From: an uncultured Bacillota bacterium
GTDB lineage: Bacteria; Bacillota_I; Bacilli_A; ML615J-28; CAG-313
Reading direction: 5' to 3'
Assembly (NCBI GenBank): GCA_900317575.1
Contig: ONHH01000024.1
Location: forward strand, 1-32,080
Length of the DNA stretch: 32,080 nucleotides
Position 1 is the stretch's first letter. The number at the start of each line of letters is the position of its first letter. The notes below the pieces were generated by a model. The model worked only from the letters and a program-made list of their open reading frames with translations. It had not been told where the DNA came from and did no database searches. Below are positions 18,359 through 25,940 of this stretch, one piece after another. The translations under genes were made by a program, and so were the position numbers.

Positions 18359-20671
18359 TCACAAATTCTTATTTTTTTTTAAAATAAAATATAAAAGTGA
18401 AATACAACTTAGAAGTTCTACTAATACTATGCTCTTTTTTCCACACTTTTTCTTAGTAGGAGTTTCTTGTTTATTTAAAGTTTCATCATAAGATACCATT
18501 ATTTCATCAGATATCATACTCTTTCCACTTGAATATTTAACATTTAATCTTACTGCAAAATCTCCAGTTGCTAGATCGATATCACTAATTTCATATGTTC
18601 TTGCATCTCTTTCTGCATACATAGATATATATTTTTCTTGACTTACTGGACGATATTCAATAAATATTGCTTCAATTTGTTTATCAGAATCATCAATATC
18701 AAAATTTAATTTAAGATTTTTATTATCTATATTTGTTGCAGTTAATGACTTAATTAATGGTTTATTAATATTAATAGTTGTGAATTCTAAATAATCTTCA
18801 CAATTCATATCTTTATTTAATAATTCATCGTGAACTACATATTCTACTTTAATTAAATAATTAGTGTTACGATTTAAATTATTAAATGTATATTTATCTC
18901 CAAATTGCTTTAAATCAATACTTTGAAGGACTTCTGTTTGTCCTGCTAATAATATAGAAGCTTTAGTAGATATATATTTACTATAATAAGTTGATACATA
19001 TTCAATAGTAGCTGATGTTGCATTTATATCTATTAATTCAATACCATGTCTTGGTGGTACATATTTTGCAGTGCTACCTTTTAAGTTAATATATCTTTCA
19101 ACAGAGTTAATTGTATAATACAATTTAACATCATATTCAGTATCTTCATTTAAATCATTAATAACAATATTACCATTTTCGCCTGGATAGAATTTTTTAT
19201 TATTACATTCAGCATATATATTACTAATTACATCTTTATTATAATCATTAATTTTTGATAACGTAATTGATGTTCTAGTTGAATCTTTTCCATAACAAGC
19301 ATATCCAGGATCTCTAACAACAAAGAAGCATCCAGAAATGACATTTCTTTGTCTAACTCCTGAATCATTTGATTCATTTACAATATCAAATGAACCGGTT
19401 GGAGTTCTAACAATAGCTGTTACTGAACCACCACCATCTTGTTGATATGCCTCTACTACGCCATAATTCTTTAAAATAGCATTTGATTCATCATGATCAG
19501 TACCAGTAAAGTTACCATTATTAACTAATCCTCTCGCAACCGTCATTAGCACATATGTACCATCTGCTTTGCGGCCAAAAATTGATCGATTATAACGATT
19601 AGTATTATATGGAGCAGTACTTTCAACATCAGCGTTACCCTTTCTTTGTAAAGAATGATATCCAAATGCTGATTCAATATTATTTAATTTATCATCTATA
19701 TAATGTAATTGAACTCTTACTCTTGTTCCTTTGGTAAGAATTGATTCCAATCCATCTCCTTCAATACCAAAAGTAAATCTATTGAATGTATATGAATCAA
19801 ATATTTCGCTTACAGTACCCCTTCCAAACACAATATCTTCTTTTGAACCAACTGAATAAGTTCTAGAATTACTCATATATGCAAGTTCAGGATCTTCAAT
19901 TATATATAATTTTGATGAAGAATTTACTTCAATTGGATTGCAAATGCCATTTGATTCTTCATTATTATATGGAAACCAAACGGATATTTTTCCACTAGTT
20001 GGTGAAGAATTAATATTGTCTACATCATATATACTAAGAATGTTTCCATCATTATCTAATATTTCAAGTTTCAAACCGCTAAAAATTTCTGCTGCATTAT
20101 TTGTTGATGTCGGATAAATAAATGGTTCATTATATTTATTATTTGATATACCTATAAAGTTACTATAATTTCCAGTTGGACTAGCTGCAAATCTTCTTTC
20201 GCCATCCATAAACAAAGGATAATATGGTTGAGGAGAATAAAAGAATGCACCTGATGTATATAAATCTGAACCAAAATATTGGAAATATTGATCTCCATTT
20301 ACACCAGCAGTAACAATCCAACCTGGGTGAGTCTTTTCATAATCCTCTGCTATATATGTCAAACCAGCTCTACCATATTTATCATTACCACTTTGAATAG
20401 CCCATGCAACTAATTTTGAATTAATTCCATCAGTTTTCATTTCTAAAAGATTAATCATTTGATTGCCATCAGAAGAATATCTTGTAGAAGTAGTTGTACC
20501 ATATGCTTTTAAATGTTTAGTTCCATATATATCCTGAACTTCTTCGGTTTTAGGAGTCCATGACGCTTTACCATTATCAGATGTATTTGCATTAAATTTG
20601 TTTAAATTAATAAACATTAAACTAATTAATAATGTAATTATAAAAGAAAAAATGTATTTATATAGTTTCAT
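18359..20671 (-). CDS. Secreted phosphodiester glycosidase (NAGPA-domain) protein with fn3-like repeats and KKCGKK C-terminal anchor, paralogue A
   Basis: The 770-residue protein begins with a signal peptide or anchor (Lys-rich start, then hydrophobic residues about 7-23), so it is exported. Residues about 75-460 match the phosphodiester glycosidase (NAGPA) family, named after the enzyme that removes GlcNAc from phosphodiester-linked sugars. Visible motifs are GVNGDQYF (123-130), NRYNRSIFGRKADGTYVL (358-375) and the signature DGGGS (412-416). Three beta-rich, fibronectin type III-like modules follow (about 468-535, 538-635 and 640-720). The C-terminus is KKKCGKK, a hydrophobic segment and a Lys/Asn tail, like a sorting or anchoring signal. 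The start is the ATG at 20671 with GAGGTG before it, not the GTG three codons upstream. Paralogue B lies next upstream. The substrate is unknown; a surface or host glycan is inferred. Confidence 0.88.
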   Translation of the reverse strand: MKLYKYIFSFIITLLISLMFINLNKFNANTSDNGKASWTPKTEEVQDIYGTKHLKAYGTTTSTRYSSDGNQMINLLEMKTDGINSKLVAWAIQSGNDKYGRAGLTYIAEDYEKTHPGWIVTAGVNGDQYFQYFGSDLYTSGAFFYSPQPYYPLFMDGERRFAASPTGNYSNFIGISNNKYNEPFIYPTSTNNAAEIFSGLKLEILDNDGNILSIYDVDNINSSPTSGKISVWFPYNNEESNGICNPIEVNSSSKLYIIEDPELAYMSNSRTYSVGSKEDIVFGRGTVSEIFDSYTFNRFTFGIEGDGLESILTKGTRVRVQLHYIDDKLNNIESAFGYHSLQRKGNADVESTAPYNTNRYNRSIFGRKADGTYVLMTVARGLVNNGNFTGTDHDESNAILKNYGVVEAYQQDGGGSVTAIVRTPTGSFDIVNESNDSGVRQRNVISGCFFVVRDPGYACYGKDSTRTSITLSKINDYNKDVISNIYAECNNKKFYPGENGNIVINDLNEDTEYDVKLYYTINSVERYINLKGSTAKYVPPRHGIELIDINATSATIEYVSTYYSKYISTKASILLAGQTEVLQSIDLKQFGDKYTFNNLNRNTNYLIKVEYVVHDELLNKDMNCEDYLEFTTININKPLIKSLTATNIDNKNLKLNFDIDDSDKQIEAIFIEYRPVSQEKYISMYAERDARTYEISDIDLATGDFAVRLNVKYSSGKSMISDEIMVSYDETLNKQETPTKKKCGKKSIVLVELLSCISLLYFILKKNKNL

Positions 20672-20707
20672 AATAATCACCTCATGAAAAATATATCATA
20701 TTTTGAC

Positions 20708-20736
20708 ATTATATTCTATAAATTAACAAATAAAAA
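20708..20736 (-). promoter_or_regulatory. Possible promoter for NAGPA paralogue A
   Basis: A TATAAT (20708-20713 on the minus strand) lies about 37 bases before the start codon. At 17 bases upstream only TTTTTA is found, inside the preceding terminator's T tract. The terminator between the two paralogues makes some promoter here likely, but the -35 element is poor. Confidence 0.35.
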
Positions 20737-20767
20737 ACTTAGTGTATTTTAAATTTACACTAAGTTT
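20729..20767 (-). terminator. Rho-independent terminator after NAGPA paralogue B
   Basis: A perfect 12-bp stem (AAACTTAGTGTA / TACACTAAGTTT, 20756-20767 with 20735-20746) with a 9-base loop, followed by a T-rich tail on the minus strand. It lies 17 bases after the paralogue B stop. Confidence 0.92.
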
Positions 20768-20784
20768 TATTTTATTATTTTATA

Positions 20785-23076
20785 TTACTTTTTTCTTCTA
20801 ATAACAAACGCTAGTAATGTAGATGCAGTTAATAAACCAACAATTAATTCTGCATTTTTCTTTCCACATTTTTTAGTTTTTTCAGGAGCTGGGGCTGGAG
20901 TATCAGGTGTTTCAGGAGCTTTTTGCATTTCATAATGTAGAACTGAACTTTCTAATTTAGTTCCTTTAAATACAAGAACTAATTTTATATCATAAGAATT
21001 CTTTGTAAAATCTAGACCAGTTACATCAACACTACCAGTTCTTGCGGTTAAAACTTGATATTCAGCACCATTTAAAGATATATATGCTTTTTCAACTACT
21101 CTATCTGGGTCAGAATATTTATATGAAATAGTTACACTATTATCTGTTTTAGAACTTTCACTAAAATTACTAATAGTTGGTAATTCATAATCAGTTGTAT
21201 GTAATATTAATTCTTCTGTACTACCACTAAATGTCTTTTTGCTTACAGGATCATATATATCATATGTAAAATAGTATGGATATTCTTGATCATATAATAA
21301 GTCAGTTGCAGTATATTCAGCAGCACTACCCATATTAAATGTTTGATCACCTAAATGAATTACAATATTAGATATATTTTCAGCATAATCTGTATTACAT
21401 TTTACAAATGTAGCTGATGTCTTACTAACAGATTTTAATTCTACTGTTTCAGTTGGGAATACATAAGCACCAGTTTTAAAAGTCTTATTAAATGATGATT
21501 TTTTAGTTTGGCCATTAATAGTAATATCATATTTAATATTTAATTCATATTCAGTCTTTTCATCTAAACCATCTAATACTAATTCACTATCATTAAAATC
21601 ATATTCTTTTCCTAATAGGCCTACTTTAATATTAGATATTGTAGCATTACCTGCAACACTTGCTTTAGTTAATTTAACAGAATGATATGTAATATTGCTA
21701 TCTAAGCATTGAACACCTGGATCTCTAATTACAAAGAATAGATAACTAAAGTTTTCTCTTGGTAATTCTGGCTTTCCTGAATCTTTAGGGAAATTAGTTA
21801 CCTTAAATGATCCATCTGAATTTCTAACCATGGCAGTTACAGATCCACCACCATCCATTTGATACATATCTTGAACACCATAATATTCTGCTAAAGCATT
21901 ACATTCTGTCCAAGTCATACCAAATGAACCAAGTGATGTTACATAGTCAGCAGTTAATAATACATATGTACCATCTGCTTTTCTACCGAATAATGCTCTT
22001 GAATAATGGTTAGTATCATATGACGCCGTTGTTGAATTATCAATACCATTTACACGATGACATGAATGATATCCTATTGCTTCTTCAACTTTATTCATTG
22101 CTTCATTTGCAAAATATTGTTCAACTTTAATTCTTTTTCCATTAGACAAAGCACTAATAACTTCTGGATTAGATGTTTCAACAGCAAATTGTCCTTTAGT
22201 TAATGTATAAGATGTAAGTGTATCATTTGATATATATCCTTTTGCAAAAATTGTATTAGTATTATAATGTCCAGGATAATATTCATCATCACCATTTTGA
22301 TACATACTCATAAATGCAGTTTCTGCATTTTCAACAATAAATAGTTTATTAGTTGTTGATACAGGTTGATCTTCAGCAACCTGAGAAAGTCTCTTACTGA
22401 AGTGGAAACACCAAACACTTGTGCCGTTTGCACTAGCATTTTTATTTAATGCTTCAACTGGGAATGTTTTTAATACCGTATTATTTTCATCTATAACACT
22501 TAATACATATCCTCCAGCTCCTTCTGAAGATACAAAACTATTAACAGAGCCATCATTTGTAAAACCAATTACACTAGTTGCATTACCAGTTGCACTAACA
22601 GTAAATAATTTATCACCATTAGAAACCATTGGATAATATGGTGAAGGTTCCATTATTGCTGATCCATCTAATCCTAAATCTGTACCAAATTTAAAGAAAT
22701 ATTGGTCAGCATTAATTCCACTTACAACAATCCAGCCAGGATTTTTTGCTTCATAATCTTTTGCGGCTTGAATGATATTCTTTCTTACATATGATGAACT
22801 ATCCTTTTGAACAGCCCAATTGACTAATTTTGATGAAAAGCCATCAGTCTTCATTGCAAAAGCATTAATGAATTGTCCATAATTTGCGCCTTTTGTTGTA
22901 GTTGTAGCTTTAACAATTTGATGATCAACTCCATAAACCACTTCTTTTTCAACATTATTAATTGTTAAAGTACTTGTGCCAGTACTATCACTGACAGAGT
23001 CTGCTTTAAAATTAACAAGATTAAAAGAAGCTACCATAATAGCAAATGCTATTATTGCAAACAAAACTTTTTTCAT
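20785..23076 (-). CDS. Secreted phosphodiester glycosidase (NAGPA-domain) protein with fn3-like repeats and KKCGKK C-terminal anchor, paralogue B
   Basis: The 763-residue protein starts with a classical signal peptide (MKKVLFAIIAFAIMVASFNL). The NAGPA domain spans about residues 75-460, with GINADQYFF (120-128), HYSRALFGRKADGTYVLLT (357-375) and DGGGS at 408-412 in the context MYQMDGGGSVTAMVRN. Fibronectin-like beta modules lie at about 470-720. A Pro/Ala linker (PDTPAPAPEK) leads to KKCGKK, a hydrophobic stretch (ELIVGLLTASTLLAFVI) and RRKK. Colinear similarity with paralogue A across the whole length shows a duplication, followed by strong divergence. The gene follows the GT2-like gene by 11 bases, with GGAGG overlapping that gene's end, and is closed by a strong terminator. 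Enzymatic activity is inferred from the family only. Confidence 0.9.
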   Translation of the reverse strand: MKKVLFAIIAFAIMVASFNLVNFKADSVSDSTGTSTLTINNVEKEVVYGVDHQIVKATTTTKGANYGQFINAFAMKTDGFSSKLVNWAVQKDSSSYVRKNIIQAAKDYEAKNPGWIVVSGINADQYFFKFGTDLGLDGSAIMEPSPYYPMVSNGDKLFTVSATGNATSVIGFTNDGSVNSFVSSEGAGGYVLSVIDENNTVLKTFPVEALNKNASANGTSVWCFHFSKRLSQVAEDQPVSTTNKLFIVENAETAFMSMYQNGDDEYYPGHYNTNTIFAKGYISNDTLTSYTLTKGQFAVETSNPEVISALSNGKRIKVEQYFANEAMNKVEEAIGYHSCHRVNGIDNSTTASYDTNHYSRALFGRKADGTYVLLTADYVTSLGSFGMTWTECNALAEYYGVQDMYQMDGGGSVTAMVRNSDGSFKVTNFPKDSGKPELPRENFSYLFFVIRDPGVQCLDSNITYHSVKLTKASVAGNATISNIKVGLLGKEYDFNDSELVLDGLDEKTEYELNIKYDITINGQTKKSSFNKTFKTGAYVFPTETVELKSVSKTSATFVKCNTDYAENISNIVIHLGDQTFNMGSAAEYTATDLLYDQEYPYYFTYDIYDPVSKKTFSGSTEELILHTTDYELPTISNFSESSKTDNSVTISYKYSDPDRVVEKAYISLNGAEYQVLTARTGSVDVTGLDFTKNSYDIKLVLVFKGTKLESSVLHYEMQKAPETPDTPAPAPEKTKKCGKKNAELIVGLLTASTLLAFVIRRKK

Positions 23077-23969: not shown

Positions 23970-25940
23970 TTAACCTACTTGATTTTCTAATTCTACTAAT
24001 TTATTATAATTTGTAACAAGACTCTTACCTTGATTTGAAATAGTATTATATAAATTTCTTGCGTATGAAACAGTTGTTTTATTAACTACTGCTCTAGCTG
24101 TAGTTAAATTATATATATACATTTCTGTCATTTCAATCTTTTGTTGATCAACAAATTGCTCATTAACTATCCATTTAGCATATAGAACTTTATTATTTCC
24201 TATCTCTGTAACTGCACTTCCATTACATTCTGGATTATCATACCATCCACCAAATGTATATCCTCTAAGATGAATATTGGAATTAATATCAGTAAAATTA
24301 TTAACAACACATGCACAATTTTGAAACATATCAATCATTCTACGAGATTGAACATAAGAAGTTTCATCAGTAAAGTAGAAGAATTTACCAATATCTACTG
24401 TTGGAGCCCATGCTTCAGCAAATAAATCAGCTCCATAATTATTTAAACTTGCATATCCTTCATCTAATCTCCAATAAGCAAAGAACAAATAAATAAATGG
24501 TAAAAAGTCTGTATATAAATTATTAATATTGCAGAAACCTAAGAAATAATCTTCTGTTTGGTTATCATATATACCATTGATATCTTTTTGAAGTAGATAT
24601 TCTCCCGCAATATCACCTATTGCTCTCATTTCTCCTCTTCCATAATTATAATCGCCTGCTAGACTAATAAATGATTCAAGACTATTAATCTTATTATCAA
24701 TTAAATCGTTCTTTAGTGGGTGATTCATTGAAATGAAAAAGTAAAAATCTGTAAAGAATGCTTTAAATAATTGTTCTCTAGATGTATAAATACCTTGATT
24801 TAATCCATTAGAGAATATATATTTAACTTCATCTTTATCATTATTGATGAAATTTAATAGATATTCTAGTTTTCCATGATATGCTACAGATTTAGTATTT
24901 TCATCTAAATTATTATATTCTCTTTCTAATTCTAGAATTCTATCCTTATTAACAAACTCAGTTCCAACTTGAATACTCATTACTTCTTTATTAAATGGAG
25001 CTGCCGTAAGTATTGCTTCTCTATATAAAGCATCAATACGTCCTTTAAGTACTTCATAATTAGAATAATTAGTAATATAACCTTTTAATTCATTAGACAA
25101 TTTATTATATTTTTTATCAATATCGTTAGTTTTATATATATCACTAGCAATAATTGAATCTTGATTTAATAATTCATTGATTAAATCACTAACTTCTTTA
25201 GCTGGTTTTAATGTGTTTGTTTTCTTTTTTGCAGCATCTAATTTATCAAAATTTGTTATTTTTAGTCTCTTTGATGGTTTTAACGATAAATATTCATCAT
25301 ATACTTCATTAATTAAATCAAAGTCATCAAAGCTAATTTCATCAGGTAATGAATCAATTCTTTGAATTACATATTCAACATTATATTCATATTCTGCAAA
25401 TAATTCTACAGTAGAATTTTCATTAATTTTAATTGTAGATGGATTAATTGTTGTACCATCACTATCACACCATCTCAAAAATGAACAGTTTAATTTAACA
25501 GGATCAGGTAAATTTATTGATTCAAAATTTAATTGCTTTAATAATTCTTTATCAATTGATCCTTTATTTAAATTAAGTTTTATTTCTTTTTGAGTAATAA
25601 AAGTTTGTATTACTGGACTAATAGTTATATTTTTATCAGTCTTTATAGGACTAACTAATTCTTTTCCTGATTCATCAATCCACTTTACAAATATATATTT
25701 ATTATTTCTTTGAATTACACTTGTATAATCTTCTTTTTCATCAACAATTATATCATTGATATATATAGTATTCTCTGTAACAGTTGGAAGTTCAAATGAT
25801 TTATTCTTTTCAACTATTAATTCACTATTATATTGAAATCCATATTCATTTTCAGCAAATGTAATTGTGTAAGTTTGCTTTTTACATGCACTAAACACAA
25901 GTAAAAATAATAATAAAACACCTATAATTATTTTTTTCAT
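23970..25940 (-). CDS. Multidomain lipoprotein with InlB-like repeats and helical repeats
   Basis: The 656-residue protein has a lipoprotein signal: MKK, a hydrophobic core and the lipobox FSAC with Cys19, then KKQ. Residues about 80-190 hold InlB/Flg_new-type beta units (YIFVKWIDESGKEL, then SFLRWCDSDGTTINPSTIKI). A canonical unit, GYTFGGWYDNPECNGSAV-TEI ending LYAKW, lies at 560-590. Three helical repeats of about 55 residues (189-245, 248-305, 313-365) share an I..L...I pattern with Y..L and a T/V-x-N-Y/F-x-x-L end. A fourth lies at 600-656, ending KSLVTNYNKLVELEN. The middle part, 375-550, is rich in Phe, Tyr and Trp and matches nothing I recognise. It is exported, lipid-anchored, and heads the operon with the GT2-like and NAGPA genes. 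Binding or structural surface role inferred. Confidence 0.85.
   Translation of the reverse strand: MKKIIIGVLLLFLLVFSACKKQTYTITFAENEYGFQYNSELIVEKNKSFELPTVTENTIYINDIIVDEKEDYTSVIQRNNKYIFVKWIDESGKELVSPIKTDKNITISPVIQTFITQKEIKLNLNKGSIDKELLKQLNFESINLPDPVKLNCSFLRWCDSDGTTINPSTIKINENSTVELFAEYEYNVEYVIQRIDSLPDEISFDDFDLINEVYDEYLSLKPSKRLKITNFDKLDAAKKKTNTLKPAKEVSDLINELLNQDSIIASDIYKTNDIDKKYNKLSNELKGYITNYSNYEVLKGRIDALYREAILTAAPFNKEVMSIQVGTEFVNKDRILELEREYNNLDENTKSVAYHGKLEYLLNFINNDKDEVKYIFSNGLNQGIYTSREQLFKAFFTDFYFFISMNHPLKNDLIDNKINSLESFISLAGDYNYGRGEMRAIGDIAGEYLLQKDINGIYDNQTEDYFLGFCNINNLYTDFLPFIYLFFAYWRLDEGYASLNNYGADLFAEAWAPTVDIGKFFYFTDETSYVQSRRMIDMFQNCACVVNNFTDINSNIHLRGYTFGGWYDNPECNGSAVTEIGNNKVLYAKWIVNEQFVDQQKIEMTEMYIYNLTTARAVVNKTTVSYARNLYNTISNQGKSLVTNYNKLVELENQVG

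What the first reader, a model, noticed from the sequence alone, without database searches (positions are those of the whole stretch)
18359..23076. Shared KKCGKK plus transmembrane C-terminus on two exported proteins: candidate sorting signal
Both NAGPA paralogues end in the order Lys-Lys-Cys-Gly-Lys-Lys, a hydrophobic segment of about 17-20 residues, then a short basic tail, preceded in paralogue B by a Pro/Ala linker. The architecture is that of LPXTG, MYXO-CTERM or Synerg-CTERM tails, but with a single Cys in a cluster of Lys instead of LPXTG. The motif is the part best preserved at the C-terminus, while the hydrophobic residues diverge. This suggests recognition by a processing enzyme (cleavage, or lipid attachment at the Cys) and not only a membrane anchor. 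Tail signals with Cys are established knowledge; this exact form I do not recognise.
Basis: partly seen in the sequence, partly recalled or inferred. Interest (0 to 1): 0.62.

Follow-up and report, generated by a model that had tools for sequence, protein, structure and literature searches.

The report
Cysteine-containing C-terminal surface-protein sorting tail
Two exported enzymes in this uncultured gut-type bacterium end in a short tail with one fixed cysteine just before a membrane segment, and the same kind of tail caps many unrelated exported proteins across a bacterial order that has no sortase, so it is probably a separate, undescribed way of fixing proteins to the cell surface.

Summary
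Both NAGPA-type proteins end in KKCGKK, a hydrophobic stretch and a basic tail. The exact DNA-level motif occurs 7 times in the 1.43 Mb genome, 0 times in the reversed control, each time at a C-terminus, once on an unrelated GHL10 protein. A profile finds at least 12 such tails here. KKCGKK is only the genus form. Across the order the invariant part is one Cys, usually 25-29 residues from the end. In samples picked by catalytic domain, not by tail, the Cys is in 12/12 NAGPA and 19/20 GHL10 membrane tails. Residues around the Cys follow the genus, not the protein family, as expected if a shared enzyme reads them. No NCBIfam sorting family reaches its cut-off. The 43 genomes examined have no sortase, exosortase or credible rhomboid. 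CPBP (myxosortase-class) proteases are present but do not track the tail. A divergent second Lgt paralogue, beside a CPBP gene in two outgroup genomes, suggests lipidation at the Cys followed by CPBP cleavage. That mechanism is inferred. The system resembles MYXO-, JDVT- and Synerg-CTERM but fails membership by sequence.

The parts
18359..20680 (-). paralogue A: exported NAGPA-type protein, 773 aa from GTG, carrying the tail
18434..18451 (-). signature KKCGKK of paralogue A; Cys codon 18443-18445
18380..18430 (-). hydrophobic segment IVLVELLSCISLLYFIL of paralogue A (17 aa)
   Evidence: sequence
18362..18379 (-). basic C-terminal cluster KKNKNL of paralogue A
   Evidence: sequence
19331..19738 (-). 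NAGPA domain match (residues 315-450) of paralogue A
20785..23076 (-). paralogue B: exported NAGPA-type protein, 763 aa, carrying the tail
20875..20925 (-). Pro/Ala-rich linker of paralogue B (residues 718-734), mostly low confidence in the model
20857..20874 (-). signature KKCGKK of paralogue B (residues 735-740); Cys737 codon 20866-20868
20800..20847 (-). hydrophobic segment LIVGLLTASTLLAFVI of paralogue B (16 aa; predicted helix 740-762)
20788..20799 (-). basic C-terminal cluster RRKK of paralogue B
   Evidence: sequence
21775..22212 (-). NAGPA domain match (residues 289-434) of paralogue B
23002..23076 (-). N-terminal signal segment of paralogue B (about residues 1-25; helix 2-20)
   Evidence: sequence

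Best explanation
The tail is the genus-specific form of a C-terminal surface-anchoring and sorting signal used across one uncultured order of Bacilli that lacks sortases. Shown: the three-part layout (a short motif with one invariant Cys, about 16-20 hydrophobic residues, a Lys/Arg cluster), its nearly fixed spacing, its presence on unrelated exported enzymes, its near restriction to this order in the class sample, and genus-wise drift of the residues around the Cys. Inferred: after Sec export the hydrophobic segment holds the protein with the Cys at the outer membrane face; an Lgt-type enzyme (canonical Lgt or the divergent paralogue here called Lgt2) puts a lipid on the Cys; a CPBP glutamic intramembrane protease then cuts on the C-terminal side and removes the membrane segment, leaving a C-terminally lipidated surface protein. 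My estimates: surface sorting/anchoring signal 0.85; Cys covalently modified 0.6; tail cleaved by a CPBP protease 0.4; Lgt-type lipidation 0.35.
For: Seven of 7 exact motif hits are C-terminal ends, 0 in the control. At least 12 tails in this genome on NAGPA, GHL10, phosphatase-like and unassigned proteins. In an alignment of 46 whole carriers the tail Cys is the only invariant column of 2436, though carriers were picked by a profile that includes it. In samples picked by catalytic domain: 12/12 NAGPA tails and 19/20 GHL10 tails; chance at body Cys frequency is about 8% per tail. Near order-restricted: strong full-length hits lie in the order, mostly weak hydrophobic-part-only hits elsewhere in 395 genomes, and the readable f7 tails lack the Cys. 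Dialect test: flank similarity 0.434 within genus between protein families against 0.201 across genera within family, 0 of 2000 permutations. Sortase 0/43, exosortase 0/43, no rhomboid over cut-off. CPBP found in 42/43, with EExxFR, FxxxH and HxxxN motifs conserved in the 18 aligned. Lgt2 in 28/31 tail-bearing genomes; Lgt2 and CPBP are adjacent, same-strand genes in G050 and G053. Precedent: myxosortase MrtX, a CPBP protease, cleaves the Cys-containing MYXO-CTERM, with Lgt proposed as acyl-transferase (PMC11980579).
Against: The main CPBP is inherited vertically and is also in genomes where no tail was found, so nothing ties it to the tail. Lgt2 is also in 8 of those 12 (Fisher p 0.08). No enzyme gene recurs beside tail genes inside the order. 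The adjacent Lgt2-CPBP pairs lie in outgroup genomes whose tails were not examined. One GHL10 tail, in G016, has no Cys. No direct evidence of cleavage or lipid exists. Lys on both sides of the membrane segment would also suit a plain anchor.
Confidence: 0.5

Rival explanations
1. Plain C-terminal membrane anchor: the hydrophobic segment stays, nothing is cleaved, and the Cys serves another purpose such as spontaneous or enzymatic S-acylation, disulfide pairing or redox protection.
For: The hydrophobic and basic parts alone would anchor the protein. In class members outside the order, Cys-free membrane tails exist on long proteins (f7 genomes). No processing enzyme tracks the tail.
Against: A plain anchor needs neither an invariant Cys at nearly fixed spacing nor genus-wise co-variation of the residues around it across unrelated proteins. 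Among GHL10 proteins of the order, membrane tails occur with the Cys in 19 of 20 cases.
Confidence: 0.27
2. The tail is read by a processing enzyme of a family not tested here, for example an unrecognised transpeptidase that joins the Cys or a neighbouring residue to a cell-wall or lipid acceptor.
For: The three classical tail-enzyme families were not found in the order and CPBP does not track the tail, while the dialect pattern points to a reader.
Against: No recurrent unknown membrane enzyme was seen next to tail genes; recurrent membrane neighbours are DUF624, DUF1189 and transporter genes in conserved gene order. MYXO-CTERM, with the same Cys layout, is cut by a CPBP protease.
Confidence: 0.18
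3. The shared tail only reflects common ancestry, domain shuffling or gene conversion of a C-terminal segment, without a dedicated function of the Cys.
For: Some tails in one genome are near-identical recent copies (C27 and C49).
Against: Hydrophobic parts diverge widely while the Cys is kept. The tail occurs on several unrelated protein families in more than a dozen genera. In genomes without Cys tails, most GHL10 proteins lack the whole tail.
Confidence: 0.05

Closest known systems
MYXO-CTERM with myxosortase MrtX (PMC11980579), and JDVT-, Synerg- and CGP-CTERM (Haft 2024, cited there; full text not held)
   Same: Short motif with an invariant Cys, hydrophobic helix, basic cluster, many exported carriers per genome; CPBP glutamic proteases occur in both.
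   Different: Tails score below the curated cut-offs of MYXO-, JDVT- and Synerg-CTERM; the host is a Gram-positive-type Bacilli lineage; the local CPBP proteins hit MrtJ and MrtS only far below cut-off; no enzyme-target gene pair was found in the order.
LPXTG/NPXTG sortase signals (TIGR01167, NF033846)
   Same: Three-part layout at the C-terminus of exported proteins; weak hits, in the printed case to the hydrophobic and basic part.
   Different: No LPXTG-like motif; sortase PF04203 in 0 of 43 genomes.
GlyGly-CTERM with rhombosortase; PEP-CTERM with exosortase
   Same: Three-part layout.
   Different: Signature differs; no exosortase and no rhomboid above cut-off in the order.
Heimdall-CTERM and Loki-CTERM (NF045529, NF033507)
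   Same: Among the best sub-threshold hits; the hydrophobic-plus-basic part resembles.
   Different: Below cut-off (20.4 against 24 bits in the best Heimdall case printed); archaeal families; the match in the printed cases starts after the Cys.
N-terminal lipoprotein pathway (Lgt, LspA)
   Same: Cys at the outer membrane face next to a hydrophobic segment; Lgt-family enzymes are present.
   Different: Order of parts is reversed (Cys precedes the membrane segment) and there is no lipobox.

Membership tests
MYXO-CTERM / myxosortase system | Tail passes the curated MYXO-CTERM models (TIGR03901, TIGR03382) | tested here: not met
   1 of 44 tails hits each, best E about 0.08
MYXO-CTERM / myxosortase system | Invariant Cys before a hydrophobic helix and a basic cluster on exported proteins | tested here: met
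MYXO-CTERM / myxosortase system | Cognate CPBP protease matching MrtX, MrtJ or MrtS models | tested here: not met
   CPBP proteins present; MrtJ and MrtS hits 19-33 bits against cut-offs 75 and 130
MYXO-CTERM / myxosortase system | Enzyme tracks the signal across genomes | tested here: not met
   CPBP also in genomes where no tail was found
MYXO-CTERM / myxosortase system | Cleavage at the tail dependent on the Cys | not testable with these tools
   needs experiment
JDVT-CTERM and Synerg-CTERM | Tail passes NF033191 or TIGR04564 | tested here: not met
   3 and 1 of 44 tails hit, best E 0.011 and 0.041
LPXTG / sortase | LPXTG-type motif and a sortase gene | tested here: not met
   no motif; PF04203 0/43 in the order
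GlyGly-CTERM / rhombosortase | Rhomboid-family sorting protease | tested here: not met
   no rhomboid over cut-off in the order; one sub-cut-off hit with five stop codons in G022
PEP-CTERM / exosortase or archaeosortase | PF09721 gene | tested here: not met
   0/60
CGP-CTERM | Cys-Gly-Pro motif | tested here: not met
   Pro is not among the residues listed two positions after the Cys, which cover 69 of 70 tails; model not hit

The most novel reading that the evidence does not exclude
A sortase-free order of Bacilli makes C-terminal lipoproteins in two steps: a divergent second Lgt-family acyl-transferase (motif GRIGCFxAGCCYG) lipidates the tail Cys and a CPBP glutamic protease removes the hydrophobic tail. 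This Lgt paralogue would be a counterpart of the still unidentified acyl-transferase postulated for Cys-containing CTERM systems.
Probability: 0.25. Interest if true: 0.82.

Novelty: new variant of a known kind. Interest (0 to 1): 0.62.

Why it matters
Sortase-free Bacilli orders have been read as having few surface proteins: a 2024 survey takes the absence of srtA/B in orders RFN20 and ML615J-28 to indicate reduced surface protein expression (PMC10868615). This order also lacks sortase yet carries many tailed exported hydrolases per genome, so a different anchoring route is likely. It gives a concrete Cys-based signal outside the lineages where such signals were described, a short list of candidate enzymes (CPBP, canonical Lgt, Lgt2), and so makes the open question of which enzyme modifies the Cys in CTERM systems testable.

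Tried and rejected
Sortase, exosortase and rhomboid as reader: not found in the order above cut-off. CPBP-B (next to the ychF gene): rejected as general reader, since members of genus g2 and of G009 lost the EExxxR motif. CPBP-A as a profile match: near-universal and vertical, so not discriminating. Lgt2 as a profile match: suggestive only, p 0.08 and confounded by phylogeny. Neighbouring polytopic genes: DUF624, DUF1189 and transporter genes explained by conserved gene order or sugar operons. A first family definition by single linkage merged unrelated carriers and was redone with a stricter one. A first Lgt motif filter dropped the divergent paralogue and was redone by coordinates. Literature: no description of such a tail in this group found in the held library; Haft 2024 itself is not held.

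Full report
Observation. The two ORFs at 18359-20680(-) and 20785-23076(-) are NAGPA-type exported proteins. They end in KKCGKK, 16-17 hydrophobic residues and a basic cluster. They are 32% identical overall while KKCGKK is identical in both. A structure prediction of paralogue B (mean pLDDT 79.5) shows an N-terminal helix, a folded mostly beta body, a low-confidence linker and a C-terminal helix 740-762, with Cys737 at the junction.

Not chance and not only paralogy. The degenerate DNA pattern for KKCGKK has 7 hits in the 1.43 Mb genome and none when read backwards. All 7 are C-terminal ends of ORFs: six NAGPA proteins and one unrelated GHL10 protein. A profile of these tails finds more members with weaker motifs (KKCGSK, KKCKKK, KSCKKN, AGCTIS, SGCNSS), giving at least 12 tailed proteins here.

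Relatives. In all five sampled genomes of the genus the tail recurs. In the rest of the family and in part of the sister family a broader form is found. In 395 genomes of the class, strong full-length matches lie in the order; matches elsewhere are weak and mostly cover only the hydrophobic part. Of those read, three f7 tails clearly lack the Cys (a fourth is masked), while one outgroup tail (G084, L217) has a Gly-Cys. Family f1 is 15 of 15; within f2 I count 16 tail-bearing genomes and 12 in which none was found. 'None found' is not proof of absence.

The Cys is the invariant part. Over 44 tails, and over 46 whole carriers, the Cys is the only invariant column. These sets were chosen with a profile that contains the Cys, so I made two samples chosen by catalytic domain instead. 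Of NAGPA homologues found through catalytic peptides, 12 of 12 with a C-terminal membrane tail have the Cys; the other homologues read have no such tail. Of GHL10 proteins found through PF02638, 19 of 20 such tails have it; the exception is G016, and one G027 case was left out because of masked bases. At the Cys frequency of the protein bodies, a Cys in that 9-residue zone is expected in about 8%. The tails are not independent, so the binomial figure overstates significance.

Dialects. The three residues on each side of the Cys are more alike between unrelated proteins of one genus (0.434) than between the same protein family in different genera (0.201); 0 of 2000 permutations reach this, and the direction holds without the window's genus (0.318 against 0.167). 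This is what a shared reader enzyme would produce. Gene conversion of tails inside a genome could contribute.

Carriers. 46 carriers include NAGPA (16), GHL10 (8), calcineurin-like phosphoesterases (8), Listeria-Bacteroides repeats (9), pullulanase-like and Ig-like proteins. Neighbours include genes that look like amino-sugar and muropeptide genes, assigned from sequence likeness by eye, not by a search.

Known families. Single tails touch LPXTG, Heimdall-, Loki-, NPXTG-, JDVT-, Synerg- and MYXO-CTERM models only weakly; where the cut-off is printed the score is below it. Pfam shows no tail family.

Candidate enzymes. Sortase: 0 of 43 genomes of the order. Exosortase: 0 of 60. Rhomboid: no hit over the cut-off in the order; one sub-cut-off hit with five stop codons. 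CPBP glutamic proteases: present in nearly all, with G027 and G028 shown by contig-edge fragments and G029 the one without a hit. The main CPBP has conserved EExxFR, FxxxH and HxxxN motifs in the 18 aligned, but its tree follows the species and it also occurs where no tail was found. Lgt: most genomes carry, besides or instead of canonical Lgt, a divergent paralogue with GRIGCFxAGCCYG in place of GRWGNFxNQE. The paralogue was classified by sequence in the loci read and by score elsewhere. It is in 28 of 31 tail-bearing and 8 of 12 other genomes, p 0.08. In two outgroup genomes of different families, G050 and G053, it lies next to a CPBP gene on the same strand.

Mechanism. By analogy with the experimentally shown myxosortase MrtX (PMC11980579) I think lipidation of the Cys followed by CPBP cleavage is the likeliest route, at under even odds for each step. 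The signal itself is far better supported than the mechanism.

Who. Contig lengths identify relatives with public MAGs: G004 with SVBG01 (deposited as Erysipelotrichaceae SIG222), G001 with CAMODB01, G007 with JAFTPH01 (Bacilli RGIG4026), G009 with DUOG01 (Acholeplasmataceae AS08sgBPME_156). Two families, peptidoglycan- and sporulation-type genes (the latter two recognised by eye) and no sortase fit the order ML615J-28 of PMC10868615, but I did not establish this.

Verdict. A real, order-wide, previously unmodelled Cys-containing C-terminal signal; a new variant of the CTERM kind; reader enzyme unknown.

Noticed in passing
L420:1677-3140, L424:712-1887, L430:2929-3783 and others: A divergent Lgt clade (GRIGCFxAGCCYG motif) beside or instead of canonical Lgt in the order.
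   Followed up: partly
L422:6175-7830 and L423:5825-7379: Lgt2 and CPBP protease genes adjacent on one strand in two outgroup genomes of different families.
   Followed up: partly
L421:1604-3154: Canonical Lgt of this genome appears fused to a HAD phosphatase (PpaX-like) domain in one 517-codon frame.
   Followed up: no
L139:3930-6785 and orthologues (L118, L127, L130, L133, L213): A conserved 950-1100 aa tailed exported protein without any Pfam hit, with a GNAT-like gene recurrently nearby.
   Followed up: no
L147:2719-3546, L153, L154, L155: CPBP-like zinc-ribbon membrane protein next to ychF that has lost the EExxxR motif in some genera.
   Followed up: partly
L356:1-3117 (G016): GHL10 protein with a basic C-terminal membrane tail but no Cys, in a genus where no Cys tail was found.
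   Followed up: no
window 23970-25940: Predicted N-terminal lipoprotein with a Listeria-Bacteroides repeat near the two tailed proteins, so the N-terminal lipoprotein route coexists.
   Followed up: no
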